NCBI GenBank assembly: GCA_905236065.1 | Contig: CAJONZ010000113.1 | Coordinates: 1-35,608, forward strand | Direction: 5' to 3' | Length of the DNA stretch: 35,608 nucleotides | Origin: an uncultured Bacteroidaceae bacterium | GTDB taxonomy: Bacteria > Bacteroidota > Bacteroidia > Bacteroidales > Bacteroidaceae | Shown: piece after piece, positions 15,193 through 33,687 of the stretch | Layout: each line of letters opens with the position of its first letter | How positions within the stretch are numbered: the first letter of the stretch is position 1 | Notes under the pieces: model-generated | Seen by the model: the letters and a program-made list of their open reading frames with translations, nothing else | Told to the model about the DNA's origin: nothing | Databases searched by the model: none | Translations under genes and position numbers: made by a program

Positions 15193-15229
15193 CAAAACGG
15201 ACATGGCTTTGAGAACCATGTCCGTTTTG
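15193..15229 (+). terminator. Intrinsic terminator after the GH128-type gene
   Basis: A perfect 14-bp stem (15193-15206 with 15216-15229, arm CAAAACGGACATGG) has a nine-base loop and is followed by TATTATTA. It isolates the M64-GH128 pair from the FAS1-Sus operon downstream. Confidence 0.85.
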
Positions 15230-15336
15230 TATTATTATGGACATTCAAAAGTGCGGTGGTGATACATTTTCTTTTCTTTCCCGCAACTTTAACTTTTATT
15301 AAGGTTTCGACTTCATTTCTTTTCGTGTAAAAGCCT

Positions 15337-15344
15337 TAAATTTG
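15337..15344 (+). promoter_or_regulatory. Probable promoter (-7 element) of the FAS1-Sus operon
   Basis: TAAATTTG matches TAnnTTTG. The -33 side is degenerate: only TTTC-type sequence is seen around 15316-15324. The element is 115 bases before the first ATG, leaving a leader of about 110 bases in which I see no riboswitch or strong hairpin. A weak -33 box may mean that an activator is needed. Confidence 0.55.
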
Positions 15345-15459
15345 CCCGACAAAATGTTAAAACATTTACTATATACCCTACCCTATGTGGAATAACGTGA
15401 AAACACGCTAAAAGTGAAGTTGCAAAAGCACTAACAATCAATAAATATTTTAACAATCT

Positions 15460-18417
15460 ATGAACAAACGTCTTTGTAAACTGGGGCTCAATGCCGTAAA
15501 GGCAGTGATGGCCGTCTCCGTTTGCGGAGCCATTTACTCATGCCGTGACGACTACAAGCTGGACGACGAAGCGCCGTCGTGGCTGGGTTCGAGCATCTAT
15601 GAGTATTTGGAAACGCAAGGGAGCTACACGAACTTCGTCAGACTGATTGACGACCTGAACTACAGGGAGGTGCTTGCACGCACGGGTTCCAAGACCCTGT
15701 TCGTCGCCGACGACAATGCGTTCAACACTTTCTATCAGAACAATGCGTGGGGAGTAAGCAACTATGAGCAGCTGACCATTTCGCAGAAGAAGCTGCTGCT
15801 GAACACGGCAATGATTAACAATGCCTACCTGCTGGAAATGATGTCGAGCAAGGAGGCAACTGGCGACTTGAATGCAACCCCAGAGCGGGGTCTGTACCTG
15901 CGCCGTGAGACGGCAATGGACATCACGGACTCCATCCCGTTCTTAAAAGGTGACGACCTGCCCGTGAACTACAATGCGGACGAGACGCACTATTGGGAGC
16001 GTTTCAAAGACAAGGGTATCTATCTGGCACTGGACGGTACGACACCGATGATTACGCATTTCCTTGCCACCCAAATGGCGAACAACAATATCACGACAGC
16101 GGACTTTGAGCGACTGACGGGGTCAACACGCTCGGAGAACGATGCCTTCATCTATGGATGCAAGGTGGTGGAGCAAGATATTACTTGCCAAAATGGCTAC
16201 ATCAACAAACTGGACCGTGTACTCGTGAATCCGCAGAACATGGCTGAGGTGTTGCGCACGAATGGCAAGACGAAGATTTTCTCCCACTTGCTCGACCGCT
16301 TCTCCGTGCCTATCTATGATGCGACCCTGACACAGCGTGCCAAGGACCTCTATGGCGACTATATCGACTCGGTCTTCCAGAAGCGCTATTTCGCCATCCG
16401 TTCACAGGGCAACAGCAAACTTTACAATGACAAGGGAGCAAACCTGAAGGAAAACGCGAACGGTAACGACGTATTCGACGACCAGGCAAACAAGCCGTTG
16501 CCATTCGATCCAGGATGGAACACATACCAGACGGACGAGAAAACGAACAAGGAGCAGGACATGGGTGTGATTTTCTGCCCAAGCGACAACAAAATCATGG
16601 AGTATTTCTTTGCCGGCGGTGGTGCCGCCTTGGTAGAGGCTTACGCCGGTGAATATACGGGACAGATTACTCCGCAAACCACCGACTTTGATTTGGTTTA
16701 TCATGCGTTGGACAAAATTCCACGCGACCGTATCCGTGCCATGATTAACAACTTGATGAAGGAATCGTTCAACAGCTCCGTGCCCAGCAAGTTCGAGAGC
16801 ATCAAGAACTCAGCCCAAGACGCCATGTTCAACAAGAACGACGACTATCACCGCAACAGAATCGACACAGTGCTGCTGGCCAGCAACGGTATCATTTATG
16901 TCATGGACGAGGTGACCACACCTGCGGAATATGCCTCAGTAAGTGCGCCAACCTACATCGAGACCGACAAGCGCATCTTCAACTGGGCCGTGCAGAGCGA
17001 CAAACTGGGCGGCATTCCAACGAACTATAGCGCCTACCTGCTGGCCATGAGCTCACGCTTCTCGTTCTTCGCACCGAAGGATGAGGGTTTCTGGTATATC
17101 GACCCGCTGTCGTTCTACAATCCCCAAATGAACGGTACGACCTTAGTGGGACGCGCATTCAAATATACATGGGACACATCGTCTGCCAACACAAAGGCTC
17201 CGAAGGTGGCCGCCTACAATTACAACTATGACCTTACGACGGGTACGGGCGCAATCGATGAGACCAGTACAGCTGCAAATGTTTCGGAAGCCGTAATGGG
17301 CAACCGCCTGAAGGACATGCTGGAAACACACACCATCATCCATGAGGACAAGAGCCAGATTACGGGCATTGACGAGACAGCAACAGGCGTGGAGTGCAAC
17401 CAGCACTATTTCATTGCCAAGAATGGTGCCGTAGTCCATGTAAACAACGCATCTGGACGCGACACGGAGGGCAGCCCAATGACGATTCAGGGTGGCTGGG
17501 ACGTACAGAACGGCAACAGTGTGAACGTGGTGAAGTTTGCTGACCAGTCTGAACAGACGAACGGCTACGGTAACGGTTTCGCCTACACCATCAGCGCCCC
17601 CATCCAGCCGACCATCGAATCGGTTTTCTCCGCCCTCTACAGCAATGACAATTTCAAGAACTTCTTCGAGCTTTGCCAGACAGACATGGAAGTGTTGGCA
17701 GAAATCGGCATCACCAAGGATTCCGAACGAAACAAGTATAACATCTTTGAGAACAACGGCGGTCTGCCCTGCTTCGACAAGACGACAGGCAGCAAGGTGA
17801 CGGACGCAACGAACGTGCGTTTCTTCAACAACTACCGCTACACCATCTACATCCCAACGAACGAAGCAATTAACGACGCCATCCTCAACGGACTGCCAAC
17901 CTGGCAGGCACTGCGCGACATACTTGAACTGGACCTCGACCCCGAAAGTCGCACGGAACTGACCACGGAGGAGGAGAATGCCCGTAACACCCGCGTGAAG
18001 GCCATGGCCACGGCAATAGTGAATTTCGTGAAGTATCACTTCCAGGATAACAGCATCTTCGTGGATCAGCCCACCATCAAGGCTACTGGCTACGAAACGG
18101 CAACCATGAACAGCGAGACACAGACTTACTACAAGGTGACCGTTTCTTCGACCGGCAACAACACGCTTTCGGTGAAGGACAACGCCGGACACACCCGTCA
18201 GGTGACTGCCGACCAGAACATCCTGGTGCGCGACTATATCACGGCAAAGAATGCGGGAACGGACAAGAACACCCTGACTTCGTCGTCGTCGGCTGTCATC
18301 CACGGCATCGACGGCGTACTGAACTACAAGACTTACGAAAACGGAAAGTATGACAGCGACTGGAGCACCTTGGCAAAGGCTCGCGCGTACCTTAATAAAT
18401 ATGGACTCACGGAATAA
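15460..18417 (+). CDS. Large multi-FAS1 (fasciclin) surface lipoprotein
   Basis: This 985-residue protein leads the operon. Its signal peptide ends in a lipobox (IYSC, Cys28) followed by RDD, an acidic signal associated in Bacteroidota with export to the cell surface. The first FAS1 domain is clear: PSWLGSSIYEYL, then the H1-type strand SKTLFVADDNAFNTFY (residues about 77-92) and the H2-type LLLNTAMINNAYLLEMM. Later segments repeat this pattern loosely, including RYTIYIPTNEAINDAI (about 793-808), so I estimate four FAS1-like units. FAS1 domains mediate adhesion or ligand binding in many organisms; the ligand here is unknown. The susC start lies 25 bases after its stop. Confidence 0.82.
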   Translation: MNKRLCKLGLNAVKAVMAVSVCGAIYSCRDDYKLDDEAPSWLGSSIYEYLETQGSYTNFVRLIDDLNYREVLARTGSKTLFVADDNAFNTFYQNNAWGVSNYEQLTISQKKLLLNTAMINNAYLLEMMSSKEATGDLNATPERGLYLRRETAMDITDSIPFLKGDDLPVNYNADETHYWERFKDKGIYLALDGTTPMITHFLATQMANNNITTADFERLTGSTRSENDAFIYGCKVVEQDITCQNGYINKLDRVLVNPQNMAEVLRTNGKTKIFSHLLDRFSVPIYDATLTQRAKDLYGDYIDSVFQKRYFAIRSQGNSKLYNDKGANLKENANGNDVFDDQANKPLPFDPGWNTYQTDEKTNKEQDMGVIFCPSDNKIMEYFFAGGGAALVEAYAGEYTGQITPQTTDFDLVYHALDKIPRDRIRAMINNLMKESFNSSVPSKFESIKNSAQDAMFNKNDDYHRNRIDTVLLASNGIIYVMDEVTTPAEYASVSAPTYIETDKRIFNWAVQSDKLGGIPTNYSAYLLAMSSRFSFFAPKDEGFWYIDPLSFYNPQMNGTTLVGRAFKYTWDTSSANTKAPKVAAYNYNYDLTTGTGAIDETSTAANVSEAVMGNRLKDMLETHTIIHEDKSQITGIDETATGVECNQHYFIAKNGAVVHVNNASGRDTEGSPMTIQGGWDVQNGNSVNVVKFADQSEQTNGYGNGFAYTISAPIQPTIESVFSALYSNDNFKNFFELCQTDMEVLAEIGITKDSERNKYNIFENNGGLPCFDKTTGSKVTDATNVRFFNNYRYTIYIPTNEAINDAILNGLPTWQALRDILELDLDPESRTELTTEEENARNTRVKAMATAIVNFVKYHFQDNSIFVDQPTIKATGYETATMNSETQTYYKVTVSSTGNNTLSVKDNAGHTRQVTADQNILVRDYITAKNAGTDKNTLTSSSSAVIHGIDGVLNYKTYENGKYDSDWSTLAKARAYLNKYGLTE

Positions 18418-18442
18418 TACTGACTTACAAAAAGAACACATT

Positions 18443-21400
18443 ATGAACAAGATTAAGTTTATCATTACAACCTTCGTGCTGTTCTTCTGCGTAAGTTCAG
18501 CAATGGCACAACAGCGACGCATTACGGGTACCGTCTATGATGACTTTGGCGGCATCATGATGGCCAACGTCGTGGAGCGTGATGCCAACAATCGTATCGT
18601 GGAGGCAGCCGTCACCGACGTGAACGGTAACTTCTCGATGCTTGTGAAGAATCCGAAAGACAAACTGGTGGTCAGCTATATCGGCTACAAGACTCACACA
18701 GAGGTGATTGGACAGAAGACGAAGTTCAACATCAAGATGCAGGACAACACCCAGTTGCAGGAAGTGGTCGTCAAGGCAAAGCCTAAGACCATGAGCAACG
18801 GTATGGCGATTCCATTGAAGGAAATCTCCGTAGCCACACAGACCATGAACATGGACGACGTAGAGGGACTTTCGTTTGCCAGTGCCGACGAGGCCCTGCA
18901 AGGTAAGATTGCCGGTCTGGATATTATCTCGAATTCTGGTAACCTGGGTGCCGGTACCTCCATGCGTATGCGTGGTGTGAGCACCATCAACGGTTCTGCT
19001 GAACCACTGATCGTCGTGGATGGAAACATCTTCGACCTGCCAGACGACGTCTCCGATGTGAACTTTGAGGACCTCGACAACGAGGAACAATTCTCCACCC
19101 TGCTCTCGGTGAATCCTGAGGACATCAAGGAAATCAAAGTGTTGAAGGATGCCGCAGCCACAGCCATCTGGGGTTCGAAGGGTGCAAACGGTGTGATTGA
19201 GATTACGACACGCCGTGGTGTTTCGGGTAAGACGAAAATCAACTTCTCGTACCGCTTCACAGGTGCATGGGCTCCAAAGGGTCTGAACATGCTGGACGGT
19301 GACGGCTACACGATGATGATGAAGGAGGCTTACTTCAATCCGAAGCAGAACAGTGCCTCGTCGAACATGGTGGAGCTGAACTACGACAAGTCATACCCGA
19401 CTCAGTACTACAACTTCAACCAGAACACAGACTGGGTAGATGCCGTCAACCAGTTTGGCCAGACACACAACTACTACCTCACGCTGACGGGTGGTGGCGA
19501 GAAGGCCAAATTCCGTATCTCCGGCGGTTATGACCATCAGACGGGTACGATTATCAAGCAGAAACTCGACCGTTTCTCCACCCGTTTGGTATTGGACTAC
19601 GACGTGAGTGACCGCATCCGTTTCTCCACGAACTTTGCGCTCACCTACACGGACAACCATCGTAACTGGAACTATGACACAGACAAGAGTTCGTACAATA
19701 CAACTTCGATTCTGGGTGCAGCCTACAAGTGTATGCCCAATATGAGCATCTACGAATATGCCTACGACCAAGCTACGCAGACCGCCTACCAAACGGGCGA
19801 CTACTACAAGATGTTGCCAACCAACCCAACGGAAGGAGGCAGTGGCAACAACGTGTATTCTTCAAACTACCTGAGCGACATGAAGGCTATCGGAAACCCC
19901 GTAGCTGCCGCTAACCTGGCATTCAACAATCAATCGACCTACCGTATCAACCCTCAGTTCAACTTGCAGTACAAGTTGCTCTCAAAGGATGACGAAGGTC
20001 ATCAGTTGAACCTGAACGCAGAGGTGTACATGGATATCTACAATGAGTCCGTCAACACCTATTACCCGAACTCACTGACCACTAATTCTTGGTCGTCGGG
20101 CGTGAATGAAAGCAGTAACAGTGAGTATAAGTCATTGGCTTTCACGAACCGTGAAAAACTCATCTTCATTCCAAAGACGAACACAGACATCTGGTCGGCC
20201 AGCGTAATGGCTCAGTTTGAGTTCACCAGCGGAAACGGTACAAGCCAAAACCTTTCCCAGGATGGTCTGCCAACAGGACTCACCTCTTCCATTGCCGAGG
20301 CTTACCTGCGCAATTCGTCTTCTGGTACGTCACAATGGCGTAGTGCCTCCATGCTTGCCAGTGCGCACATCGCCTTCTTCGACGGACGCTATGCTTTCGA
20401 TGCCACTGTACGCCGCGACGGTTCGACCAAGTTTGGTGCAGGTCGCAAGTGGGGTACATTCCCTGGTATCTCTGCCCGCTGGAACATCAGCCAAGAGCCT
20501 TTCTTCGAGAAGATTGACCCCAAGCACATTATCTCGCTGCTCTCCTTCCGCCCATCATGGGGTAAGGTGGGTCGCCAGCCAGGCAATGAGTACCTGATGT
20601 ACAACTCATACAGCTCTGCCGGTGTCTATGGTTCATCGAAGTATGCAGCCATCCAGGCTGGTAGCCTTCGATTGACGGACATCAAATGGGAGACCACAAA
20701 ATCGTGGAACCTGGGTGCAAACCTGAACCTGTTCAACGACCTGTTGCAGTTTGACTTCAACTACTACAACAAGCAGACCAGTGACCTGCTGATGAAGAAC
20801 GTAGGCATTCCCGGCACGACGGGTTACGGCACGTTGGCTTGGAAGAACGTAGGTGGCCTGCGCAACCGTGGTTGGGAACTTTACGTCAACACGGGTAAAT
20901 TTGCCAAAGCGGGCAAATTCTCCATGTCGGCCTCCTTCAACATTGCCCAGAACGTGAACACAATCACGGAAATGGATGCCAGCGTACTTTCTTCGATGAA
21001 TGGTGACTACAGCTATAGAGTGGCTGAATACTTGCAACGCATCCAGATTGGTAATGCCGTGGGTTCCATCTACGGCTTCAAGTATGCAGGTGTGTATGCC
21101 TACGACTATGACCATAGCGGCTACACCGAGACTTCGCTAAAGACTTACGGTAAGAACACCGCAGCGTATGCAGCTTCCGTTGGCCAGAACTCAACCGTGC
21201 CTGTTGCCCGTGACGAGAATGGGAACATTTTGTTCGACGCTAAGGGTAATCCACTCCACATGTATTATAATTATGGTGGCATCAACTATGAGTTCAAGGG
21301 CGGTGACGTTATGTACGAGGATATCAACCACGATGGTCAGATTAATGAACTTGATATCGTCTATCTGGGTAACTCCAACCCGAAGCTAAACGGTGGTTTC

Positions 21401-21877
21401 GGACTGAACTTCAACTATGGTCCTTTCACACTGAAGCTCTCGTTCACCTACCGTTGGGGTAACAAGATTGCGAACATGGCCCGCCTGAGAAACGAGTGGA
21501 TGCGTACCAACATCAACCAGAGTGCGGCAGTGGCATGGCGTTGGAGAAAGAATGGCGACGTGACGGAAATTCCACGTGCCATGAACGCAAGTATCGGTGC
21601 CTCCTACAACGCTTTGGCCAGTGACCGATATGTGGAAAACGGCGACTACCTGCGCCTGCAATACTTGCAGCTCAGCTACAGCTTGCCACAGAAGGTTTGC
21701 AAGAACATAGGTATGCAGTCTCTGCGTCTGTCACTTTCGGCAAACAACGTTTTCTGCCTGACCAAATATACTGGTGTTGACCCAGAGGTAAGCTATGGTT
21801 CATGGGGCGTATGTTACGACAATTCAAAGACTCCACGAGCAAAGTCCTTCACACTGAGCGTGAACTTGGGATTCTAA
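18443..21877 (+). CDS. SusC/RagA-family TonB-dependent outer-membrane transporter (first copy)
   Basis: This 1144-residue protein forms a 22-strand beta barrel that imports a large ligand with energy from TonB. It has a signal peptide (residues 1-22, ending SAMA), a carboxypeptidase-regulatory-like domain (about 25-100, starting RRITGTVYDDFGG), a TonB-box-like LQEVVV (105-110), and a plug (about 124-259) with MRMRGVSTING, PLIVVDG and the closing KGANGVIEITT. The C-terminus ends in aromatic Phe (LSVNLGF), the normal barrel-assembly signal. There is no N-terminal STN domain, so direct signalling to an anti-sigma factor is not expected. The open frame reaches back into the preceding gene, but the ATG at 18443 gives the signal peptide. 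Its SusD partner starts 39 bases downstream. Confidence 0.95.
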   Translation: MNKIKFIITTFVLFFCVSSAMAQQRRITGTVYDDFGGIMMANVVERDANNRIVEAAVTDVNGNFSMLVKNPKDKLVVSYIGYKTHTEVIGQKTKFNIKMQDNTQLQEVVVKAKPKTMSNGMAIPLKEISVATQTMNMDDVEGLSFASADEALQGKIAGLDIISNSGNLGAGTSMRMRGVSTINGSAEPLIVVDGNIFDLPDDVSDVNFEDLDNEEQFSTLLSVNPEDIKEIKVLKDAAATAIWGSKGANGVIEITTRRGVSGKTKINFSYRFTGAWAPKGLNMLDGDGYTMMMKEAYFNPKQNSASSNMVELNYDKSYPTQYYNFNQNTDWVDAVNQFGQTHNYYLTLTGGGEKAKFRISGGYDHQTGTIIKQKLDRFSTRLVLDYDVSDRIRFSTNFALTYTDNHRNWNYDTDKSSYNTTSILGAAYKCMPNMSIYEYAYDQATQTAYQTGDYYKMLPTNPTEGGSGNNVYSSNYLSDMKAIGNPVAAANLAFNNQSTYRINPQFNLQYKLLSKDDEGHQLNLNAEVYMDIYNESVNTYYPNSLTTNSWSSGVNESSNSEYKSLAFTNREKLIFIPKTNTDIWSASVMAQFEFTSGNGTSQNLSQDGLPTGLTSSIAEAYLRNSSSGTSQWRSASMLASAHIAFFDGRYAFDATVRRDGSTKFGAGRKWGTFPGISARWNISQEPFFEKIDPKHIISLLSFRPSWGKVGRQPGNEYLMYNSYSSAGVYGSSKYAAIQAGSLRLTDIKWETTKSWNLGANLNLFNDLLQFDFNYYNKQTSDLLMKNVGIPGTTGYGTLAWKNVGGLRNRGWELYVNTGKFAKAGKFSMSASFNIAQNVNTITEMDASVLSSMNGDYSYRVAEYLQRIQIGNAVGSIYGFKYAGVYAYDYDHSGYTETSLKTYGKNTAAYAASVGQNSTVPVARDENGNILFDAKGNPLHMYYNYGGINYEFKGGDVMYEDINHDGQINELDIVYLGNSNPKLNGGFGLNFNYGPFTLKLSFTYRWGNKIANMARLRNEWMRTNINQSAAVAWRWRKNGDVTEIPRAMNASIGASYNALASDRYVENGDYLRLQYLQLSYSLPQKVCKNIGMQSLRLSLSANNVFCLTKYTGVDPEVSYGSWGVCYDNSKTPRAKSFTLSVNLGF

Positions 21878-21916
21878 ATAATGCACAATGCACAATTGAA
21901 CTCAAAAACTTATAAT

Positions 21917-23797
21917 ATGAAATCAATCTATAAAAATATAGCCATCTGCGCCGCAGCCGTAATAGGCACAGGGATGCTTGCCAGTTGTGAAGATTTCCTC
22001 ACCATCACCCCTACCGACAAAATCGTAGAGGAAGAGTTCTGGCAGGACAGGAACGACCTGACCAATGCCGTCTATGGATGCTACAAGCGGCTTGCCTCCG
22101 ATGACATTTTGAGAAAATTTGTCTATTGGGGAGAGATGCGTTCTGACAATTTTGAACGCTCCACATCAACCAGTGCGACAGGTGAAGTCGCCAACATCAT
22201 GAATGCGAACCTACTGCCGACCTACGGAACTTTCAGTTGGACGGCACTTTACAAAGCCATCAACGATTGTAACAAAGTTCTGGCAAACGGTCCCGAAGTG
22301 GTTCAGACAGACGAAAGTTTCTCGGAAACGGCATGGATTCCCATCCGGGCAGAAATTATCACCCTGCGGGCACTCTGCCACTTCTATCTGGTGCGTACAT
22401 TCGGTGAGATACCTTACGTTGTGATAGATTACAACAACGACTCACAGGAACTGCGCCAGACGCAGGAGCCTCAACTCACCGTGCTGAACAAGATTATCGA
22501 CGACCTTGAGTCTGTAAAAGACCAGGCCATGAACGATTACGGTACAACGATGCTCAACAAGGGCCGCATCACAAAGAAAGCCATCTATACCCTTTTGGCT
22601 GACGTGTATCTTTGGCGAGCCAGCTACAAAGAGGGGGGATGTCATCCGTTCATAAACCGCACACTGCCTACCACGCAGAACTACTATGAGGGAGCCGTGC
22701 CTTATACTGACATTGAGTACGGCACGTCTGCACAATATGACTATCAGAAATGTGTTGAATGCTGCGACAAGGTTATCCAGATTGCAAAAGAGGAGTACAT
22801 CAAAAAAATCTCCAAGAGCCTCGTCGGCGGCGCAAGCATCGAATTTGAGTTGGACGACCTGCTTGAACAGAATGTTGCATCAACCAACTCCCTGCAAAGA
22901 TTCACTGTTTCTTCTTCCTTGGGTGCCTACTACAACCTGTTTAACACAGGAAACTCCTCGGAGAGCATTTTTGAGTTGCAGTTTGACGGAAACACGTACA
23001 GCAACAACATTGTTTCAGATTTGTACCTCCATTCCGACGGAAAATCCGGCACCTTTGTTGGGGCTCCTACCCTGTTTGAAGGTCTTGAGGTAACGCCTAA
23101 CACGGTAAGCCCAAGCAAACTTTTCACAAAGACGGATTACCGCAGATGGGAAAGTGTCTTATTCGATGGACAAGGACAGACAACCTTCTCGCTTTGCAAA
23201 TATGCGATGGGTGAGATTGAACAGTCAACGAGCAAGGCAAGCGATATGGTGACCGATAACGATGGCATGCTTACTTATACCACCAAGTACCGCACCATGA
23301 GTGATGCCAATTGGATTGTCTATCGTATGTCGGAAGTGCTCCTGATGAAAGCAGAAGCCATCTCCCGCCTATATACGGACAATGTGAACCTGAAAGAAGG
23401 TTTCGATTGTGTACGCACCGTCTTCAAGCGTTCCAATCCTTATCCATACGACAACACTGCAAGCGCAACAGACACCTTGGTCTTTGCACAAAACTTTGAC
23501 ACACAAAGCGGACTGGAAAGCCTAGTTATGCAGGAGCGCCAGCGCGAATTCATTTGCGAGGGCAAACGATGGTTCGACCTTGTTCGCTATGCACAGCGCA
23601 GAGGCAACACGGAGGACATGCTCGCTTTGCTAACCCGTAAGTACTCTACAAACCGCAAAGCGGTAGAGGCTAAACTGGCCGATATGCAATCGCTTTTCTC
23701 TCCAGTAAACGAGAGTGAAATTAAAAACAACACATGGCTCTACCAGAACGGCGTGTGGAAGATGACTGAATCGAGCAGCCGTACTGATAACATGTAA
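21917..23797 (+). CDS. SusD/RagB-family surface lipoprotein (first copy)
   Basis: This 626-residue lipoprotein is the lid partner of the SusC encoded just upstream. The ATG at 21917 is chosen over 21881 because it gives a normal signal peptide ending in LASC (Cys24) followed by EDF; the 12-residue extension comes from a short duplicated ATGCACA spacer. The N-terminal part has the usual FLTITPTDKIVEEEFW, the middle has the helical CHFYLVRTFGEIPYV region of the TPR core, and the C-terminal family motif ERQREFICEGKRWFDLVRY lies near residue 540. SusD proteins capture ligand and close over the SusC barrel. It is a little longer than the common 500-600 residues. The next FAS1 gene starts 15 bases after the stop. 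Confidence 0.93.
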   Translation: MKSIYKNIAICAAAVIGTGMLASCEDFLTITPTDKIVEEEFWQDRNDLTNAVYGCYKRLASDDILRKFVYWGEMRSDNFERSTSTSATGEVANIMNANLLPTYGTFSWTALYKAINDCNKVLANGPEVVQTDESFSETAWIPIRAEIITLRALCHFYLVRTFGEIPYVVIDYNNDSQELRQTQEPQLTVLNKIIDDLESVKDQAMNDYGTTMLNKGRITKKAIYTLLADVYLWRASYKEGGCHPFINRTLPTTQNYYEGAVPYTDIEYGTSAQYDYQKCVECCDKVIQIAKEEYIKKISKSLVGGASIEFELDDLLEQNVASTNSLQRFTVSSSLGAYYNLFNTGNSSESIFELQFDGNTYSNNIVSDLYLHSDGKSGTFVGAPTLFEGLEVTPNTVSPSKLFTKTDYRRWESVLFDGQGQTTFSLCKYAMGEIEQSTSKASDMVTDNDGMLTYTTKYRTMSDANWIVYRMSEVLLMKAEAISRLYTDNVNLKEGFDCVRTVFKRSNPYPYDNTASATDTLVFAQNFDTQSGLESLVMQERQREFICEGKRWFDLVRYAQRRGNTEDMLALLTRKYSTNRKAVEAKLADMQSLFSPVNESEIKNNTWLYQNGVWKMTESSSRTDNM

Positions 23798-23812
23798 AAG
23801 AAAGGTAATATC

Positions 23813-25942
23813 ATGATAAGAAATATAAAAAATCTTTTCAGCCTTGCACTTTTATTGGGAAGTGCTGCGGCCATGACTCTAAACTCATGTAAAGAGAACA
23901 TTGACGATAGCGACCTCTACACCTTCACGGGTGAGATGATGACCGACCACTTCGTCAATAATCCTGAGCAGTTTAGCAGTTACCTCACCCTCCTGAGCAG
24001 GGTCACGCCAAGCAAACGCTCCGCATCGACCATGCGCGAGCTTCTGAACGCACGTGGACATTACACATGTTTTGCGCCGACCAACCAGGCGATTGCTGAG
24101 TACATTGCATCGCTTTACAATGCAGAGAAGCCACAGGTTTCGTCCCTCAATCTGGATGAGGTTCCCGACTCTGTGGCAAAGTCGATTGTCTTCAACTCAA
24201 TCATTGAGAACGGAAACAACGAGGCATACGCAACGACCGACTTTGAAACGGGTGCGCTGGGAACGACCAACATGAACGATCGATACATCAGTATCTCTTA
24301 CGGCACGGAGATTGCCAATATCAGCCAGAGCGGCGACACAGCCCTGAACACCATCATCTACGTCAACACAAACTCCAAGATTATTGAGAGTGACATTGAA
24401 GTGGAGAACGGTTACATCCATGTGGTTGACCATGTGCTCGCCCCATCTACTGCAACGGTGGCCGACCTGGTCATCAGCACGCCGAACATGCAGTTCTTTG
24501 GCGACCTGCTGAAAAAGACAGGCTGGAACTCCAAGCTGACGAACTACAAGGACGAGGCTTGGGAAGAGAAACACGACGACATTCGTGGAACCATCTACAA
24601 CGGTATGAACGGTGGTTGGGAAGGTCTCTATCCCGAACATCACTACTATGGCTATACCCTTTTCGTAGAGACCGACTCTGTCTATCAAAGCAAGGGCATC
24701 ACAGACATTGAGAGCCTGAAACAGTGGGTAATGGCAAACAACCATTTTGACGACGACACCAATCAGGGGCACGTCACCAGCTGGGGCACGGACTATTCCA
24801 GCGACTACAACTGGCTGAACCAGTTTGTCGCTTACCACATCCTGCCGGAGCGTCTCACCTATAACAACATGGTGACATTTGCCAACGAATACGGATGTGA
24901 TGCTTCCATGATGAAAGACCGCACTCCTTCCCAGTTCTACGTAAACGTATGGGAATACTGGGAGACCATGGCCATTCAACGCCGCTCCATCAAGATTACC
25001 GGTTGCCGTCACGATGGAACCATCCAACGTCGCATCAACCGTGTGTCGAAATACAACCAGAAAACCTACAAGGAGAACAGAGGCGAAATGACTGAAGACG
25101 ACTACGGCATCCGCATTTCTGACTCGAACGAATCGTACGATAACAATGCGCTCAACGGCTACTACTACCCCATTGACGACATCCTCATTTGGAACAGCCG
25201 CGTACCCAACCGCGTACTGAACGAGCGTCTGAGATTTGACATCACCTCACTCTTCCCTGAAATGATCACGAACAACATCCGACAGAACCGTGTCAACTCT
25301 TGGTATTTCACAGAGGACTATCTGGCAGGCATTGTCGATATGACCTCAAGCACCGACTTTGAGTATCTGCCCAATACCTCCTACTCTACGGGTCTTGGTT
25401 CATGGATGGACTATCAGATTGACGAGTTCAACATCCGTGGTCAATACGACTTCACCATGAAGTTGCCACCTGTTCCATACACCGGCACCTACGAATTGCG
25501 CTATGGTGTCTGGGCAAACGACAACCGAGGCATGGCACAGATTTACATGGGCGAGAACTGGAAGAACCTTCCCGCCATCGGCATCCCGCTTGACCTCCGC
25601 TCAAGTTCCGGTACCAATCCTTCTTCCACGGGATGGGTGGCAGAGTCAAGCATTGCCCCGACAGGTACAGACTCCACCTCACTGTTCGAAAATCAGAAGA
25701 CCATGCGTAACCTGGGATTCATGAAGGGTCCGAAGTATATTCAGGTAAACGGTGGTACGGGACGCGACAGCCAAAACAACCTGCGTAAAATCATCTACAC
25801 GGGTCAGTTTGAGGCTGGAAAAACCTACTACATCCGCTTCAAGTCGGTACTGACAAGTACAAATACTGAGTTCTTCTTTGACTACATTGAATTGGTACCC
25901 AAGTCAGTATATTCAGGCGAGAACAACGAAGACATCTGGTAA
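23813..25942 (+). CDS. FAS1 lipoprotein with C-terminal beta-sandwich
   Basis: This 709-residue lipoprotein has a signal peptide ending LNSC (Cys26). The first FAS1 domain contains LLNARGHYTCFAPTNQAI (H1 region, residues 78-94). A second FAS1-like domain follows, with YTLFVETDSVYQ near 281 and an H2-like WLNQFVAYHILPERLTY near 334. From about 543 the chain becomes a beta-sandwich (YTGTYELRYGVWAND, GIPLDLR, TYYIRFKSV, FFFDYIELVPKSVY) similar in style to a carbohydrate-binding jelly roll. This layout is often labelled fasciclin plus DUF5108, as far as I recall. It probably sits on the surface beside the Sus pair. The ligand is unknown. The spacing of 15 and 25 bases to its neighbours supports co-transcription. 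Confidence 0.82.
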   Translation: MIRNIKNLFSLALLLGSAAAMTLNSCKENIDDSDLYTFTGEMMTDHFVNNPEQFSSYLTLLSRVTPSKRSASTMRELLNARGHYTCFAPTNQAIAEYIASLYNAEKPQVSSLNLDEVPDSVAKSIVFNSIIENGNNEAYATTDFETGALGTTNMNDRYISISYGTEIANISQSGDTALNTIIYVNTNSKIIESDIEVENGYIHVVDHVLAPSTATVADLVISTPNMQFFGDLLKKTGWNSKLTNYKDEAWEEKHDDIRGTIYNGMNGGWEGLYPEHHYYGYTLFVETDSVYQSKGITDIESLKQWVMANNHFDDDTNQGHVTSWGTDYSSDYNWLNQFVAYHILPERLTYNNMVTFANEYGCDASMMKDRTPSQFYVNVWEYWETMAIQRRSIKITGCRHDGTIQRRINRVSKYNQKTYKENRGEMTEDDYGIRISDSNESYDNNALNGYYYPIDDILIWNSRVPNRVLNERLRFDITSLFPEMITNNIRQNRVNSWYFTEDYLAGIVDMTSSTDFEYLPNTSYSTGLGSWMDYQIDEFNIRGQYDFTMKLPPVPYTGTYELRYGVWANDNRGMAQIYMGENWKNLPAIGIPLDLRSSSGTNPSSTGWVAESSIAPTGTDSTSLFENQKTMRNLGFMKGPKYIQVNGGTGRDSQNNLRKIIYTGQFEAGKTYYIRFKSVLTSTNTEFFFDYIELVPKSVYSGENNEDIW

Positions 25943-25967
25943 AACCTATTAAACGAAATGAATCATT

Positions 25968-27875
25968 ATGAAAATCAACAATAGAAAATGGGTTACGATG
26001 ACCTTCATGGCGGGAGCTTTGGCAACTGTCATCACAGGTTGTAAAGACGACCACTTCGATTTAAATTCCGACGTGGCTGGCACCCAGACAATCTGGCAGA
26101 ACATCAAAAACAACCCAGACTTGTCGCAATATGCCGACATTCTTCAGAGTGTGTATTATTCCATGACAGATGAAAAAACCTCCTCTGAGACATACGCCGA
26201 TTTCCTGAACGGCGACCAGACACTCACCGTCTGGGCACCGCTGAACGGACAATTCGACTATGCCTACTACAAGGGACTTCTGGGCACAGGAATCCGTGAC
26301 AGCATTTACAAGGTGGAGAAAGAGCTCATCCGCAACAACATGACACGCTTCTCCTACGTGCTGAACGGACAAGACTCTGTAAAACTGGAACTTTTCAACG
26401 ATAAAGCCGCCTGGCTCAATTACAACCGGGCAACCCTTCAGGGTCGAAAGATTACGACACCTAACATTGCGGCAAGCAACGGTGTGCTGCACATCATCGA
26501 GACCCCTGTCACCTACCAACCCAACCTCTATGAGTACATGGCATCACGTCCAGACCTGGACTCCCTCAACAACTTCATCAAGGGATTCCAGAAACTGGAG
26601 TTCAACGAATATGCCTCTACACAGGGACCGACCATCAACGGAGAAGTCACGTGGGTGGATTCCATCACTTATGTCTCCAACAACTACACCAATCTCTACA
26701 TGGATGCCTACCTGAATCGTGAAGACAGTAACTACGTGATGATTATGCCAACCAACACGGCCTGGGATGCCATTTTGGCAAAGACCAAGAAGTATTACAC
26801 CTTCAAGCAGGAATACAACCAGACCATCCACACCCAGACCGAGTTGGGCAACGATACCACCTATGCAGCTAAAACGACCTTCACACAGGAGGAACTGGAC
26901 TCCATCCAGAACCTTTACTCCAAGAACGCCATCTGTCAGGATCTGACGTTCAATGCCAACTGGCAGTACGAAGGTATTCCCATCACAAGCATTCAGGACA
27001 TCCGAAATTTGGACACACGCAGAGATTCATTGCAGTCAACCGCGGGGACAAAGTTCAAGAAGGCAGGTTCCGTGGACGGGACAAGCAGAAACAACCCCGC
27101 TGTTGAGGTCGAGAGTTTCGCTGAGATGTTTGGCAATGAAGCCCCAGTGGAGACCAGCAACGGTTATGCCTATATCGTGAACGAATGGAAACTTCCTTCC
27201 GAGGTTTATGCCCCAGTGATTGACAAAGATGCCCGCCTGTCGCTCGAATACTCCGACAACAACTGTAACGCATCCGACCTCACGTGGACAATCGAGTACC
27301 CTTCGTTCATCGATCAAGATGAAGGTAGCACCATCCAGGTTGACTCCGTTTACAAGTACAACTACTTGCAGATGAGCGCAAAGACTTCGAACACACACCC
27401 TGGAGCCTATTTCAAGATTCCCAACGTGCTTTCTGCCACCTACGACATCTTTGTGGTCATCGGTTACAACCTCGCTGACAACAAGCCAAACAAGTTCCGT
27501 GCATGGTTGGCATACGACCGGGAAAACGACCGCATCGACATCGAGCGTAAAAACAGTACGGCGAAAAACAACGATGCCATCCTGAAGAATCCCAACGAGG
27601 ACGCCGTGGATGTTGACGGCGTAACAAGCCTTTACAATGGAAACTTCTTTGTCAACAGAGACATTCGCCCCAGCATCAAAAACGGAAAGCTCAATGCCGA
27701 GCTGACCGACACCATTTGTCTGGCACGCGACTTCACATTCCCCATCTGCTATCATGGGCTGAAAGACGCTTACCCAACGCTTTTCCTGCAAAGTAGCTTC
27801 ACTTCATCACAAAAGGATAAATATTCCCGTAACATTTGGGTCAACGCCATCATCCTGAAACCCAAAGACAATTGA
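25968..27875 (+). CDS. Second FAS1 lipoprotein with C-terminal beta-sandwich
   Basis: This 635-residue lipoprotein ends its signal peptide with ITGC (Cys25) followed by KDD, a good surface-export signal for Bacteroidota. A FAS1 domain follows, with QTLTVWAPLNGQFDYAYY (residues 84-101); a second has NYVMIMPTNTAWDAIL near 255. A C-terminal region from about 420 (AYFKIPNVLSATYDIFVVIGY, RNIWVNAIILKP) is beta-rich and has the same position as the sandwich of the preceding protein. The two genes therefore share one architecture and may be an old duplication, although their sequences have diverged widely. The function is unknown; ligand binding or bridging at the cell surface is inferred from the neighbours. 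Confidence 0.8.
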   Translation: MKINNRKWVTMTFMAGALATVITGCKDDHFDLNSDVAGTQTIWQNIKNNPDLSQYADILQSVYYSMTDEKTSSETYADFLNGDQTLTVWAPLNGQFDYAYYKGLLGTGIRDSIYKVEKELIRNNMTRFSYVLNGQDSVKLELFNDKAAWLNYNRATLQGRKITTPNIAASNGVLHIIETPVTYQPNLYEYMASRPDLDSLNNFIKGFQKLEFNEYASTQGPTINGEVTWVDSITYVSNNYTNLYMDAYLNREDSNYVMIMPTNTAWDAILAKTKKYYTFKQEYNQTIHTQTELGNDTTYAAKTTFTQEELDSIQNLYSKNAICQDLTFNANWQYEGIPITSIQDIRNLDTRRDSLQSTAGTKFKKAGSVDGTSRNNPAVEVESFAEMFGNEAPVETSNGYAYIVNEWKLPSEVYAPVIDKDARLSLEYSDNNCNASDLTWTIEYPSFIDQDEGSTIQVDSVYKYNYLQMSAKTSNTHPGAYFKIPNVLSATYDIFVVIGYNLADNKPNKFRAWLAYDRENDRIDIERKNSTAKNNDAILKNPNEDAVDVDGVTSLYNGNFFVNRDIRPSIKNGKLNAELTDTICLARDFTFPICYHGLKDAYPTLFLQSSFTSSQKDKYSRNIWVNAIILKPKDN

Positions 27876-27945
27876 TTTTAGCAAACAGGAATCATCGTAA
27901 AGTCTTAAAGTGTTTGGTTTATTTTAATACATTGTTTTTAACATT

Positions 27946-30900
27946 ATGATACGACATATTAATAACAACATTCTGCGCACAGGCATCGCACTCTGCATGT
28001 TCACGGCTTCTGCATCCCTCTTTGCGCAAGCAGAGGGACAAGAAACCCTGGAAGCACCCCAAAAGGCAAAAGTGGTCAAGCCTGAGCGTCAATATGAAAT
28101 GAAGACCGTCAGCGGCTACGTCTATGATGCCGCAACAGGCAACCCGATTGACGGAGCAAACGTGAAGGCATACGGCCACAACCGCTTTTCTGTCATGACC
28201 GACGAGAAAGGTCAATACACGCTGAGAGTGCCCGTGTTCGTCAACTCGCTCTACATCACCGTACCCGAGTACAACGACTTGCAGATTTCGTTCGACGGTG
28301 AGCAGGTGCCCGACGCTGCACTCTACTCTACCCTCTTCAAGAACATCTATGCTCCTCAGACTTCCACCTCACAGGTGAGCAAGGCCATCATCAACAACAC
28401 CAGTGCAGTCACTGTGGATGAGGAAATCGAAAAACAGCTGAACGGCGACATCCGTACCATTAACCGCACAGGTGTCAGGGGCCAAGGCGTGGCCATGTTC
28501 ATGAACGGCCTGAACTCGCTCAACTCCATTGCACAGCCGCTCATCGTGCTCGACGGCATGTTCATCGACATGCAGCTCGACCGCACCAGCATCCACGACG
28601 GTTTCTACAACAACATCCTTGCCGGCATCGACCCCGAGGACATCGAGACCGTGGAAATCGTGAAGAACGGAACCGCCCTGTACGGCTCACGCGGTGCAAA
28701 CGGCGTCATCCTTATCAACACAAAGCGTGGCCGCTCAATGGCAACACGCATCAACGTCAGCCTCAACGCCGGCTTCGAGTTGGCCCCTGGCTACACAAGC
28801 ATGATGAACGCTTCGCAGTATCGCAACTACGCCAGCAGCCTGATTGGTACGACTGAATACGGCCAGCTGCACTCCACGGCAAGCTCGCGTATTACCTTCC
28901 TGAACAACGATCCAAACTACTACTGGTATCCACTCTATCACAACGAAACCGACTGGAGCGACGGCCTTTACCGCACCGCTGCCACCCAGAACTACAAAGT
29001 CAGCGTACAAGGTGGTGATGACGTCGCCATGTACAACCTCTCTCTGGGCTACACCAACTCGCAGTCAACAGCCAAGCAAAACGGTTTTGACCGTCTGAAC
29101 ATCCGATTCAACACCGACATCAAGCTGGTAAAGAACGTATCCACCCAGCTCGACCTCTCCTACAGCAAGCTCGGATACAACCTGCGCGACAACGGATGGG
29201 CTGAAAGCTATGCCTCCAGCACCGTCTCCTCGCCTAATGTGCTTGGTCTCATCCAGTCTCCCTTCCTTTCCAAATACGGCTACTACACGGGCGACGACGG
29301 AAAGCTTCACCTTTCCAGCGTATATGCGGGCAAATACATCGACGACGACAACTATCCCTTCGACTTTGCAAGCGCATACGGCACAAACGCCGCACTGGCC
29401 AACCCCTACTGGATTCTGGAAAACGGCGACGGCTCGAACAAAAACCGTCAGGAGGTTACACAGTTCAACCTGAACGTGAATCCCCAATGGGATATTAACA
29501 AGCACCTCTCCATCTCCAACCGATTTGCCTATCAGCTGAACCGCACCAACGAGAAATTCTATCTGCCCGAGGCCGGTATTCCTCAATACACCTACGAGGG
29601 CTATGGCGACGTGACCTCCGTGGTGAAGTCCCTTTTCTCCAAGGAGACCTCCGTCTATGAGAACTTCAAGATTAACTGGGGCAACAACTACGGCATCCAC
29701 GACATTAACGTCTTCGGCGGTTTGCGCTACACCAGCAACACTTTCTCTGACAGCTACATGAGCGGTTACAACGCAGGCAACGACAAGATGCCGGACATGA
29801 AGAACTCGCTCGACTTCCGCAGCGTTCAGGGTAATCAGAACAAGTGGCGCAACCTGGCCTACTATCTGAACGCCAAGTGGGGAATCAAGAACACCTACTT
29901 CATTGAAGGCTCCTTCTCTGCCGAAACCTCCTCACGCTTTGGCCGTGAAACAGCCGAAGGTCTGAAAATGTTCGGCGTGAAATGGGGACTCTTCCCAAGC
30001 ATTCAGGGCGCATGGGTCATCTCTAACGAGAAATGGATGCAAAAAGGCAAAGGCATCAACTACCTGCGCCTCACTGCCGGCTACGACATCTCGGGCAACG
30101 ACAACATCGACTACGACCTTGCGCGTACCTACTTCAAGTCCTATACCTACCTGAAGAACGCCACGGCCCTGCAGCTTGCCAACATCGAGAATCAAGCTAT
30201 CCAGTGGGAAACCACCCGCAAGTTCAACGTCGGACTGGACGGTTCCTTCGTCAACAACCGCATTCAGGCAGGTATTGAGTTCTACGTAAGCAACACCAGC
30301 AACCTGCTTACCCAGAAGAACCTCAGCTACCTCACAGGTCTTCGAACCTATTACGCCAACGACGGTTCGCTCCGCAACGTCGGTGCCACAGTCAAGGTGA
30401 ATGCCATTATCCTCAATACAAAGAATGTTAAATGGCAGATTGGCGGAAGCATCGGACACTACAAAAACAAAATCACAGACCTTCCGACCGACGAATACAC
30501 CACAAAGATTTACGGCGCAGAAGTGCTGACCAAGGTGGGAAGCCCCGCAGGTCTCTTCTACGGCTATCAGACAGCAGGCGTGTTTGCCAGCAAGGAAGAG
30601 GCAAGCCATGCCACGACTCAAAACGACGGCTATCTGAAATATCCTACTGGTGTGACCAACAATCCATATAAGAACTTCCAGGCAGGCGACGTACACTTCA
30701 TCGACCAGAACAACGACGGCGTCATCGACGATGCAGACAAAATCGTCATTGGCGACCCGAACCCCGACATCTTCGGTGACATCTACACCAACCTGAAGAT
30801 TGGCAGCCACTGGACGGTGGACATCAACTTCAAGTACTCGCTGGGCAACGACATCTATAACTACCAGCGCAGTCAGCTGGAAGGGGTGAACAACTTCTAC

Positions 30901-31263
30901 AACCAGACGACAGCCGCAGTCAACCGCTGGTCATACGAGGGTCAGCGCACCGACATTCCACGCGCCGTTGCCACAACCTCCGAAGAGTGGGTGAACAACG
31001 AACGCTTCTCCGACCGTTGGATTGAGGATGGTTCTTACCTGAAACTCAAGAAAGTCCGCGTCAGCTACGAACTGCCCATCAACTCTGCGTGGATTCAAGG
31101 ACTCACCATCTGGGCCGAAGGCAACAACCTCTTCACCCTGACCAAATATTTAGGAAAAGACCCCGAGGTTTCTTGTGGTAACAGCGTACTCTATCAAGGC
31201 ATCGACGCCGGTCTCCTGCCAAGCGGACGCTCATTCAACCTGGGTGTAAAGATTAACCTCTAA
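27946..31263 (+). CDS. SusC/RagA-family TonB-dependent transporter (second, atypical copy)
   Basis: This 1105-residue protein has a signal peptide (ending SLFAQ, about residue 27), a 25-residue polar linker, a carboxypeptidase-regulatory-like domain (55-110, VSGYVYDAATGNPIDGANV) and a plug ending with GSRGANGVILINTKRG (247-262). The barrel and a KINL C-terminus follow. Two points are unusual: I see no EVVV-type TonB box, and the common RIRG plug motif is replaced by MFMNGLNSLNS (184-194) before PLIVLDG. It may therefore couple to TonB differently or have specialised. The 70-base gap in front of it is the largest in the operon, but I see no convincing promoter there. The SusD-like gene starts 23 bases after its stop. 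Confidence 0.92.
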   Translation: MIRHINNNILRTGIALCMFTASASLFAQAEGQETLEAPQKAKVVKPERQYEMKTVSGYVYDAATGNPIDGANVKAYGHNRFSVMTDEKGQYTLRVPVFVNSLYITVPEYNDLQISFDGEQVPDAALYSTLFKNIYAPQTSTSQVSKAIINNTSAVTVDEEIEKQLNGDIRTINRTGVRGQGVAMFMNGLNSLNSIAQPLIVLDGMFIDMQLDRTSIHDGFYNNILAGIDPEDIETVEIVKNGTALYGSRGANGVILINTKRGRSMATRINVSLNAGFELAPGYTSMMNASQYRNYASSLIGTTEYGQLHSTASSRITFLNNDPNYYWYPLYHNETDWSDGLYRTAATQNYKVSVQGGDDVAMYNLSLGYTNSQSTAKQNGFDRLNIRFNTDIKLVKNVSTQLDLSYSKLGYNLRDNGWAESYASSTVSSPNVLGLIQSPFLSKYGYYTGDDGKLHLSSVYAGKYIDDDNYPFDFASAYGTNAALANPYWILENGDGSNKNRQEVTQFNLNVNPQWDINKHLSISNRFAYQLNRTNEKFYLPEAGIPQYTYEGYGDVTSVVKSLFSKETSVYENFKINWGNNYGIHDINVFGGLRYTSNTFSDSYMSGYNAGNDKMPDMKNSLDFRSVQGNQNKWRNLAYYLNAKWGIKNTYFIEGSFSAETSSRFGRETAEGLKMFGVKWGLFPSIQGAWVISNEKWMQKGKGINYLRLTAGYDISGNDNIDYDLARTYFKSYTYLKNATALQLANIENQAIQWETTRKFNVGLDGSFVNNRIQAGIEFYVSNTSNLLTQKNLSYLTGLRTYYANDGSLRNVGATVKVNAIILNTKNVKWQIGGSIGHYKNKITDLPTDEYTTKIYGAEVLTKVGSPAGLFYGYQTAGVFASKEEASHATTQNDGYLKYPTGVTNNPYKNFQAGDVHFIDQNNDGVIDDADKIVIGDPNPDIFGDIYTNLKIGSHWTVDINFKYSLGNDIYNYQRSQLEGVNNFYNQTTAAVNRWSYEGQRTDIPRAVATTSEEWVNNERFSDRWIEDGSYLKLKKVRVSYELPINSAWIQGLTIWAEGNNLFTLTKYLGKDPEVSCGNSVLYQGIDAGLLPSGRSFNLGVKINL

Positions 31264-31286
31264 TCCTCTTAAAACCATCGATTACA

Positions 31287-33566: not shown

Positions 33567-33593
33567 AAGCGCATCCCACTCCCGGATGCGCTT
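33567..33593 (+). terminator. Terminator of the FAS1-Sus operon
   Basis: A 10-bp stem (33567-33576 with 33584-33593, arm AAGCGCATCC) with a seven-base loop is followed by a run of T residues to 33599. It is the only clear terminator between 15230 and this point. Confidence 0.9.
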
Positions 33594-33687
33594 TTTTTTG
33601 CTCGCCATAGGCACCCGACCGCAATGCGGTCACTGCTCCGCAACCGAGGATACAAGCGTAGGGTGGCTTCCCGACAAAATGAAGCTT

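What the first reader, a model, noticed from the sequence alone, without database searches (positions are those of the whole stretch)
15460..33530. Seven-gene FAS1-SusCD-FAS1-FAS1-SusCD operon with no degrading enzyme
Two SusC/SusD pairs and three FAS1 lipoproteins lie on one strand with gaps of 15-70 bases, one clear promoter-like element in front and one clear terminator behind. Ordinary polysaccharide loci carry glycoside hydrolases or a hybrid two-component or SusR regulator; none is here. FAS1 domains are known for adhesion and protein or glycan binding. The inference is a surface uptake or adhesion machine in which FAS1 lipoproteins act as ligand-presenting subunits of two SusCD complexes. 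The ligand is unknown.
Basis: partly seen in the sequence, partly recalled or inferred. Interest (0 to 1): 0.75.

Follow-up and report, generated by a model that had tools for sequence, protein, structure and literature searches.

The report
Ancient twin-importer cassette with fasciclin arms
A block of seven neighbouring genes, two nutrient importers plus three fasciclin-domain surface proteins, is kept in the same order in very distantly related Bacteroidia, and one of the two importers lacks the short segment that normally connects such importers to their energy source.

Summary
In detail: seven same-strand genes encode FAS1-SusC-SusD-FAS1-FAS1-SusC-SusD. It is a conserved cassette: complete in 18 of 20 genus orthologs (two cut by contig ends), four copies in the window's genome (8 of 12 SusC genes), same-strand seven-gene runs at 14 of 20 order-level loci, and 7 of 12 loci from other orders of the class, plus two six-gene forms. 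SusC1 and SusC2 form two clades with mirrored trees.

New here: SusC2 lacks a recognisable TonB box (0 of 77 scored; SusC1 45 of 82; controls 29 of 31). F1 models as tandem FAS1; F2 as two FAS1 plus a CBM-like sandwich.

The seven genes hold no enzyme; a GH128-like enzyme and M64 peptidase lie just upstream, not obligately linked. Some distant cassettes lie near rhamnose or rhamnogalacturonan genes.

Best reading: one outer-membrane uptake complex, TonB-driven SusC1D1 beside box-less SusC2D2, with FAS1 capture arms. Assembly and ligand are inferred.

The parts
15460..18417 (+). F1: 985-aa FAS1 lipoprotein, modelled as tandem FAS1 domains along its whole length (four by comparison with TGFBIp/periostin)
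   Evidence: Pfam PF02469 41.6 bits, 2 stretches; AlphaFold model mean pLDDT 87.8; Foldseek best TGFBIp E 1.8e-19 over 946 columns, but TMq 0.23
18443..21877 (+). SusC1: SusC/RagA transporter with TonB box LQEVVV (ORF can be read from 18350)
   Evidence: TIGR04056 678 bits; box
21917..23797 (+). SusD1 lipoprotein (ORF can be read from 21881)
   Evidence: PF07980 78.2 and PF14322 69.4 bits, both over cut-off
23813..25942 (+). F2: 709-aa FAS1 lipoprotein, two FAS1 domains plus C-terminal CBM6/4/22-like beta-sandwich (about residues 497-696)
   Evidence: PF02469 49.7 bits; model mean pLDDT 66.8; Foldseek
25968..27875 (+). F3: 635-aa FAS1 lipoprotein; N-terminal part aligns with the first FAS1 of F2
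   Evidence: PF02469 26.6 bits; hhalign F3-F2 98.4% over the N-terminal part only; profile match to periostin/TGFBIp
27946..31263 (+). SusC2: SusC/RagA protein with CarboxypepD_reg domain and plug but no recognisable TonB box; ALYSTLFKNIY at that place
   Evidence: TIGR04056 545.6 bits
31287..33530 (+). SusD2 lipoprotein, 747 aa, divergent SusD
   Evidence: PF07980 26.0 bits against 23.1; PF14322 19.0, below its cut-off of 27
15320..15345 (+). Conserved promoter-like element in front of F1 (T-rich stretch, then TAAATTTGC)
   Evidence: conserved in most of 21 aligned genus upstream regions; no strict consensus match
33567..33601 (+). Intrinsic terminator-like hairpin and T run after SusD2
15193..15229 (.). 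16-pair hairpin between the upstream enzyme gene and F1, probably ending the upstream unit
12295..15162 (+). Neighbour, not a cassette member: secreted GH128-like enzyme (Glyco_hydro_cc), weak H-type lectin match below cut-off
   Evidence: PF11790 89 bits, H_lectin 22.0 against 24; both catalytic Glu positions kept in 17 of 17 aligned; unlinked in 4 genus genomes
10819..12267 (+). Neighbour: M64 peptidase
   Evidence: PF09471 214.8 bits and PF16217 152.9 bits

Best explanation
The seven genes encode one surface uptake machine of the SusCD kind that has become asymmetric. SusC1-SusD1 is the energised importer: it keeps the TonB box through which TonB pulls on the plug. SusC2-SusD2 is a second barrel and lid that lacks that box and cannot be driven in the canonical way; it probably takes the place of the second copy in the usual SusC2D2 dimer, as a partner that holds substrate and anchors surface proteins. 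F1, F2 and F3 take the place of surface glycan-binding proteins: strings of FAS1 domains, in F2 ending in a carbohydrate-binding-module-like sandwich, that catch a long plant cell-wall chain (pectic rhamnogalacturonan in the better-marked relatives) and pass pieces to the lids. Enzymes are supplied by variable neighbouring genes rather than by the cassette. Shown by computation: gene content, deep conservation of order, co-divergence of SusC1 and SusC2, absence of a recognisable TonB box in SusC2, FAS1 folds, partial clustering with rhamnose and rhamnogalacturonan genes. Inferred: physical complex, SusC1-SusC2 pairing, ligand, and that the missing box means no TonB coupling.
For: Order: complete in 18 of 20 genus orthologs, two cut by contig ends (the last SusD of G004 seen); of 80 loci fetched by the F2 profile (capped list) 36 complete and 9 partial at contig ends; 14 of 20 chosen order-level loci are same-strand seven-gene runs, 12 of them with a profile match at all seven places; 7 of 12 chosen loci, from 6 genomes of other orders, complete, and 2 more six-gene. 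Four copies in the own genome, 8 of 12 SusC and 8 of 12 SusD genes. Trees: SusC1 and SusC2 each one side of a branch, support 100 and 99, with path lengths correlated r 0.98 over 31 cassettes. TonB box: 0 of 77 scored SusC2 pass the shuffle threshold, 45 of 82 SusC1, 29 of 31 scored controls, 15 of 18 divergent control SusC; C2-specific LYS..F...Y in 45 of 77, none of 82 SusC1 or 31 controls; two SusC2 (L251, L252) lack the N-terminal extension as well. Box deletion abolishes function in Bt1763, and SusC2D2 dimers are usual (PMC7782687, passages). Folds. Ligand: rhamnose operon beside L248, PL4 lyase, GH2 and GH115 beside L244; RhaT within 20 kb of 4 of 27 cassettes, 0.22 expected; 4 of 10 cassette SusC near RhaT or RGI lyase against 3 of 91 others in four genomes.
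Against: No complex, expression or binding data. 35 of 80 loci carry an F2 homolog with no other cassette gene recognised, some on short contigs, so F2-like proteins also act alone. 37 of 82 SusC1 fall below the box threshold, and a few (for example L129, L126, L138) show no clear box. The box test is a sequence motif; SusC2 may use a different TonB contact, such as the conserved LYSxxFxxxY. Most cassettes (21 of 27) have neither RhaT nor RGI lyase within 20 kb, none of the four in the window's own genome does, and the pectin idea came from two of the loci, one of which (G363) is in the count. F2's model is of middling confidence (66.8) and its sandwich also resembles toxin domains of the same fold class. 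F3's C-terminal part was not shown to match F2's.
Confidence: 0.45

Rival explanations
1. Two independent, both TonB-driven SusCD importers share an operon with FAS1 glycan-binding proteins; SusC2 uses a diverged TonB box that motif searches miss.
For: SusC2 keeps plug and N-terminal extension in most members, and a conserved element (LYS..F...Y) occupies the same place. Double susCD pairs occur in known PULs, for example the B. xylanosolvens xylan PUL (PMC11216935, passages). Some SusC1 boxes are also diverged.
Against: Divergent control SusC of similar profile score keep the box in 15 of 18 cases, two more just below threshold; two SusC2 have lost the whole N-terminal extension; strict co-occurrence and mirrored trees suggest one unit.
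Confidence: 0.3
2. An ordinary polysaccharide utilisation locus whose enzymes happen to be next door (GH128-like and M64 in the window), the FAS1 proteins being a local kind of surface glycan-binding protein.
For: GH128-like gene directly upstream in 14 of 18 genus orthologs with flank, and in the window; catalytic Glu kept in 17 of 17; CAZymes beside other cassettes.
Against: Enzyme elsewhere in the genome in the 4 other genus genomes; a hairpin separates it from F1; neighbours differ from cassette to cassette while the seven genes do not; does not account for the box-less second SusC.
Confidence: 0.15
3. An adhesion machine: FAS1 strings hold the cell to plant particles or host matrix, and the SusCD barrels are mainly anchors.
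For: F1 resembles the matrix proteins TGFBIp and periostin; SusC2 lacks a recognisable TonB box; orphan F2-like genes exist.
Against: SusC1 keeps a TonB box in most members; SusD lids are kept in both pairs; clustering with rhamnose uptake and lyase genes.
Confidence: 0.1

Closest known systems
SusCD utilisomes (levan, dextran) of Bacteroides thetaiotaomicron (PMC7618045, passages; PMC7782687, passages)
   Same: SusC barrel with N-terminal extension and plug, SusD lid, extra surface lipoproteins encoded alongside; SusC1 has the same kind of TonB box as Bt1763 (VDEVVV).
   Different: Known ones use one SusCD pair as a homodimer with a glycoside hydrolase and an Ig-type glycan-binding protein. 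Here two different SusCD pairs are always encoded together in the runs seen, the second without the box, with FAS1 lipoproteins and no enzyme.
Double susCD pair of the B. xylanosolvens xylan PUL (PMC11216935, passages)
   Same: Two susCD pairs in one locus.
   Different: No FAS1 proteins mentioned (terms fasciclin and FAS1 absent from that paper); followed by DUF1735 and GH10 genes. Whether one of its SusC lacks a box was not tested here.
TGFBIp / periostin / fasciclin I (PDB 7asg, 5yjg, 1o70)
   Same: Tandem FAS1 fold.
   Different: Animal extracellular matrix proteins, 10-12% identical in the structural alignment; no lipoprotein anchor or SusCD partners.
[quoted passage not shown]
   Same: SusCD pair in stable complex with two further lipoproteins that are not enzymes.
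   Different: One SusCD pair; FAS1 content of those lipoproteins was not tested here.

Membership tests
SusC/RagA outer-membrane transporters | TIGR04056 over curated cut-off | tested here: met
   SusC1 678 and SusC2 545.6 bits against 368.25
SusC/RagA outer-membrane transporters | plug domain and N-terminal extension (CarboxypepD_reg) | tested here: met
   Plug 49.5 and 41.6 bits against 23.9; CarbopepD_reg_2 37.3 in SusC1, CarboxypepD_reg 35.5 in SusC2, both over their cut-offs; two remote SusC2 lack the extension
TonB-dependent transporters: SusC1 | TonB box between extension and plug | tested here: met
   LQEVVV in the window protein; 45 of 82 SusC1 over the shuffle threshold
TonB-dependent transporters: SusC2 | TonB box between extension and plug | tested here: not met
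   0 of 77 scored, 3 of 80 not scored
SusD lipoproteins | SusD_RagB or SusD-like_3 over cut-off | tested here: met
   SusD1 78.2 and 69.4 bits; SusD2 26.0 against 23.1 for SusD_RagB only
FAS1 / fasciclin domain proteins | PF02469 over cut-off and FAS1 fold | tested here: met
   F1 41.6, F2 49.7, F3 26.6 against 22; folds for F1 and F2; F3 by profile only
Polysaccharide utilisation locus | susCD pair physically linked to CAZymes and a regulator | tested here: inconclusive
   GH128-like enzyme adjacent but unlinked in 4 of 18 genus orthologs with flank; no regulator among the window genes identified by Pfam
Utilisome | stable outer-membrane complex of all components | not testable with these tools
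Surface glycan-binding protein | binds a glycan at the cell surface | not testable with these tools
   CBM-like sandwich in F2 is a lead only

The most novel reading that the evidence does not exclude
An obligate asymmetric twin-barrel importer: SusC1D1 (TonB-driven) and SusC2D2 (box-less) form a heterodimer in place of the usual SusC2D2 homodimer, dressed with three FAS1 lipoproteins. The split arose once, before the orders of Bacteroidia diverged, and the seven genes have been inherited and duplicated as a block since.
Probability: 0.4. Interest if true: 0.82.

Novelty: new variant of a known kind. Interest (0 to 1): 0.66.

Why it matters
SusCD complexes are thought to work as homodimers in which every barrel can be driven by TonB. 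A class-wide cassette in which one of two SusC proteins consistently lacks a recognisable box gives a natural experiment on why SusC barrels pair and what the non-driven partner contributes. It also gives FAS1 domains, best known as animal and plant adhesion modules, a likely role in bacterial nutrient capture, and names a large uncharacterised share (8 of 12 SusC genes) of the uptake apparatus of a herbivore-gut bacterium. Terms for FAS1 or fasciclin together with SusC, SusD or TonB receptors found no description of it in the held open-access library; subscription journals and preprints were not searched.

Tried and rejected
Considered and rejected: (1) that the seven-gene order is a chance neighbourhood or a private feature of one genome (rejected). 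(2) That the GH128-like and M64 genes belong to the cassette: adjacent in 14 of 18 genus orthologs with flank, but the GH128-like gene is elsewhere in the other four. (3) That the missing TonB box is just drift in low-scoring SusC: a second control of 18 low-scoring, non-cassette SusC kept it in 15, two were just below threshold, and one lacks it (L264); that one branches near the SusC1/SusC2 pair on a long branch (support 87) but has no cassette gene around it. (4) Consensus promoter scan: not above shuffles. (5) Rfam: nothing in the window.

Led nowhere: literature for GH128 with lectin in Bacteroidetes (listing only), for xylan-binding fasciclin (nothing relevant), and for SusC with TonB box and heterodimer (12 of 84 listed, mostly unrelated). 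PMC10199937 holds both fasciclin and SusD, but its FAS1 gene is mentioned apart from its double susCD locus (passages); PMC2668756 likewise (passages). The lipobox regex was too strict to be useful (F1 29 of 81, F2 57 of 142, F3 72 of 97).

Limits: the order- and class-level loci (20 and 12) were chosen by me from the hit lists, not drawn at random. The trees are quick LG+G4 trees with long-branch warnings. The proximity test treats features as independent and was suggested by two of the loci. In one search a run needed only seven same-strand genes around SusC1; L169 lacks a profile match at place 1 and L185 at place 5, and in five runs the last SusD scored best against the SusD1 profile. The other six of those 20 loci: L173, L175, L177 and L178 are cut by ends, L170 has a different order, L179 has F2 without the others.
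Full report
What is there. The window is a whole contig (G000:C113) of a 2.73-Mb draft genome estimated 88% complete. Seven ORFs on the + strand from 15460 to 33530 encode F1 (985 aa), SusC1, SusD1, F2 (709 aa), F3 (635 aa), SusC2 and SusD2. FAS1, SusD and Plug models pass their Pfam cut-offs, and both SusC pass TIGR04056. Contigs of relatives in the same genus match in length records labelled Candidatus Minthosoma equi and caballi (39953 and 18249 bases), so the genus is probably a herbivore-gut Bacteroidales lineage of that name; this is an inference.

Conservation in the genus and family. F2 has a homolog in 36 of the 37 genomes of the genus examined, the window's own included; in 20 others it is an ortholog at 59-84% identity. 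In 18 of these 20 all seven genes stand in the same order; the two others are cut by contig ends (the last SusD of G004 was masked by a reverse ORF and is seen on the same contig). Named carriers include Alloprevotella rava DSM 22548 (L125) and an uncultured Paraprevotella (L118).

Own genome. Besides the window there are cassettes on contigs C128, C71 and C68 (F1 of C128 runs off the contig). Of 12 SusC genes over the cut-off, 8 are in these four cassettes, and so are 8 of 12 SusD matches. Another F2-like gene on C60 stands without the others.

Depth. In 295 genomes of the order 55 have an F2 match at E 1e-10. I fetched 20 loci of my choice: 14 are seven-gene same-strand runs, 12 of them with a profile match at every place. 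In 296 genomes of the phylum 75 match at E 1e-8. Of 12 chosen loci, 7 from 6 genomes of other orders of the class have the complete order, 2 have a six-gene form with one FAS1 gene between the pairs, and 3 have none.

The two SusC are different and old. In a tree of 34 SusC1, 35 SusC2 and 19 other SusC, each of the first two is one side of a branch with support 100. Adding the class-level loci and more divergent controls (24, 25, 26 rows) gives 99 for each. SusC1 and SusC2 path lengths correlate at r 0.98 over 31 cassettes, and the branching order is nearly mirrored, so the pair has been inherited together; own-genome copies therefore look like block duplications. The trees are quick searches with long-branch warnings.

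The missing TonB box. In Bt1763 the box is VDEVVV, between the N-terminal extension and the plug, and deleting it abolishes growth on levan (PMC7782687, passages). SusC1 of the window has LQEVVV there; SusC2 has ALYSTLFKNIY. A position matrix from 34 control SusC, applied to the linker, exceeds the 95% shuffle level in 29 of 31 scored controls (leave-one-out), 45 of 82 SusC1 and 0 of 77 scored SusC2 (3 controls and 3 SusC2 could not be scored). Many of the 37 SusC1 below the level still show related motifs such as LKEVVI or LTDVIV; a few do not. An earlier count with another window gave 33 of 34, 38 of 73 and 2 of 71 above 5 bits, and a plain regex 45 of 73 SusC1 and 2 of 71 SusC2, the two being LQVVV inside the extension. 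Low-scoring non-cassette SusC pass in 15 of 18, with two just under and one (L264) without. SusC2 instead often has LYS..F...Y (45 of 77; 0 of 82 SusC1; 0 of 31 controls; looser form 63, 1 and 2). In the two six-gene loci SusC2 has also lost the extension.

FAS1 proteins. F1 is modelled well (pLDDT 87.8) and aligns along almost its whole length with the four-FAS1 proteins TGFBIp and periostin (E about 1e-19 to 1e-16), with low overall TM because the domain arrangement differs; four domains is my count from this. F2 (pLDDT 66.8) has two FAS1 domains and a C-terminal sandwich whose Foldseek neighbours are CBM6, CBM4 and CBM22 modules and other proteins of that fold class, at E about 1e-3. F3 is FAS1 by profile and aligns with F2 only in its first domain. 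Profile searches of solved structures for all three listed FAS1 proteins of other organisms, animal ones at the top.

Enzymes and regulators. Directly upstream lie an M64 peptidase and a secreted GH128-like enzyme with both expected catalytic Glu positions, as in all 17 aligned; the H-type lectin match is below cut-off. The GH128-like gene is next to the cassette in 14 of 18 genus orthologs with enough flank; in the other four (G004, G024, G029, G034) it is elsewhere. A strong hairpin lies between it and F1. So the enzyme is a neighbour, not a member. Other cassettes have other neighbours: GH43 (C68) and a SASA-type esterase (C128) in the own genome; GH2, a CBM-containing protein and a hybrid two-component regulator at order level; GH115, an esterase, FGGY kinase, GH2 and BNR proteins at class level; four of ten neighbours tested had no family.

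Ligand hint. One class-level cassette stands beside an L-rhamnose set (FGGY kinase, isomerase-like TIM barrel, aldolase-dehydrogenase, RhaT), another beside a three-domain PL4 rhamnogalacturonan lyase with GH2 and GH115. Prompted by these, I tested proximity in 25 genomes: RhaT lies within 20 kb of 4 of 27 cassettes (0.22 expected, P 8e-5), RGI lyase near 4 of 27 (0.55 expected, P 0.002). One of the RhaT cases (G363) is a prompting locus. In four genomes 4 of 10 cassette SusC genes (2 of 5 cassettes) lie near such a gene against 3 of 91 other SusC. GH88/105 genes were listed (capped) but not put into a test. Most cassettes, and all four of the own genome, have neither marker near. Pectic ligands are thus likely for some cassettes only.

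How it probably works. Known utilisomes hold two copies of SusCD with a hydrolase and a glycan-binding protein per barrel (PMC7618045, passages). The simplest mechanism consistent with the data is that here the dimer became a heterodimer: SusC1D1 imports, SusC2D2 without box serves as capture and anchoring partner, and the FAS1 strings gather polymer. Each of these last steps is inference.

Novelty. Searches of the held library for fasciclin or FAS1 with SusC, SusD, TonB receptors or Prevotella gave no description; three papers hold fasciclin and SusD, two of which I checked by passages, the third being a Drosophila paper seen as a listing. Double susCD loci are known. I therefore call it a new variant of a known kind.

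Noticed in passing
L046, L086, L087, L088 (upstream of F1): A 12-bp palindrome ATTTGGCCAAAT is conserved roughly 100-130 bases upstream of F1 in the C68-type paralogous cassettes; possible operator.
   Followed up: no
L264 (G212:C9) and L274: A SusC without a TonB box and without SusD or FAS1 cassette genes around it, branching near the SusC1/SusC2 pair on a long branch.
   Followed up: partly
L251, L252: Six-gene forms of the cassette with one FAS1 gene between the pairs; SusC2 of 933 and 919 aa lacks the N-terminal extension; followed by BNR-repeat lipoproteins.
   Followed up: partly
35 of 80 loci, e.g. L107, L122, L127, L133: F2-like FAS1 proteins without other recognised cassette genes, e.g. 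beside a GH20 gene (L127).
   Followed up: partly
window 15025-15162 (C-terminal tail of the GH128-like protein): The last 35-60 residues recur at the ends of other proteins in G000 and G004 (7 places, E about 1e-4 to 1e-3); possibly a dockerin-like or sorting tail.
   Followed up: no
L083, L084: Two GH128-like genes in tandem upstream of the cassette in G028 and G031.
   Followed up: no
L046:7499-10459: GH43 protein with Laminin_G_3 and a dockerin-type match upstream of the C68 cassette in the own genome.
   Followed up: no
L170: A cassette variant with F2 moved behind SusD2.
   Followed up: no
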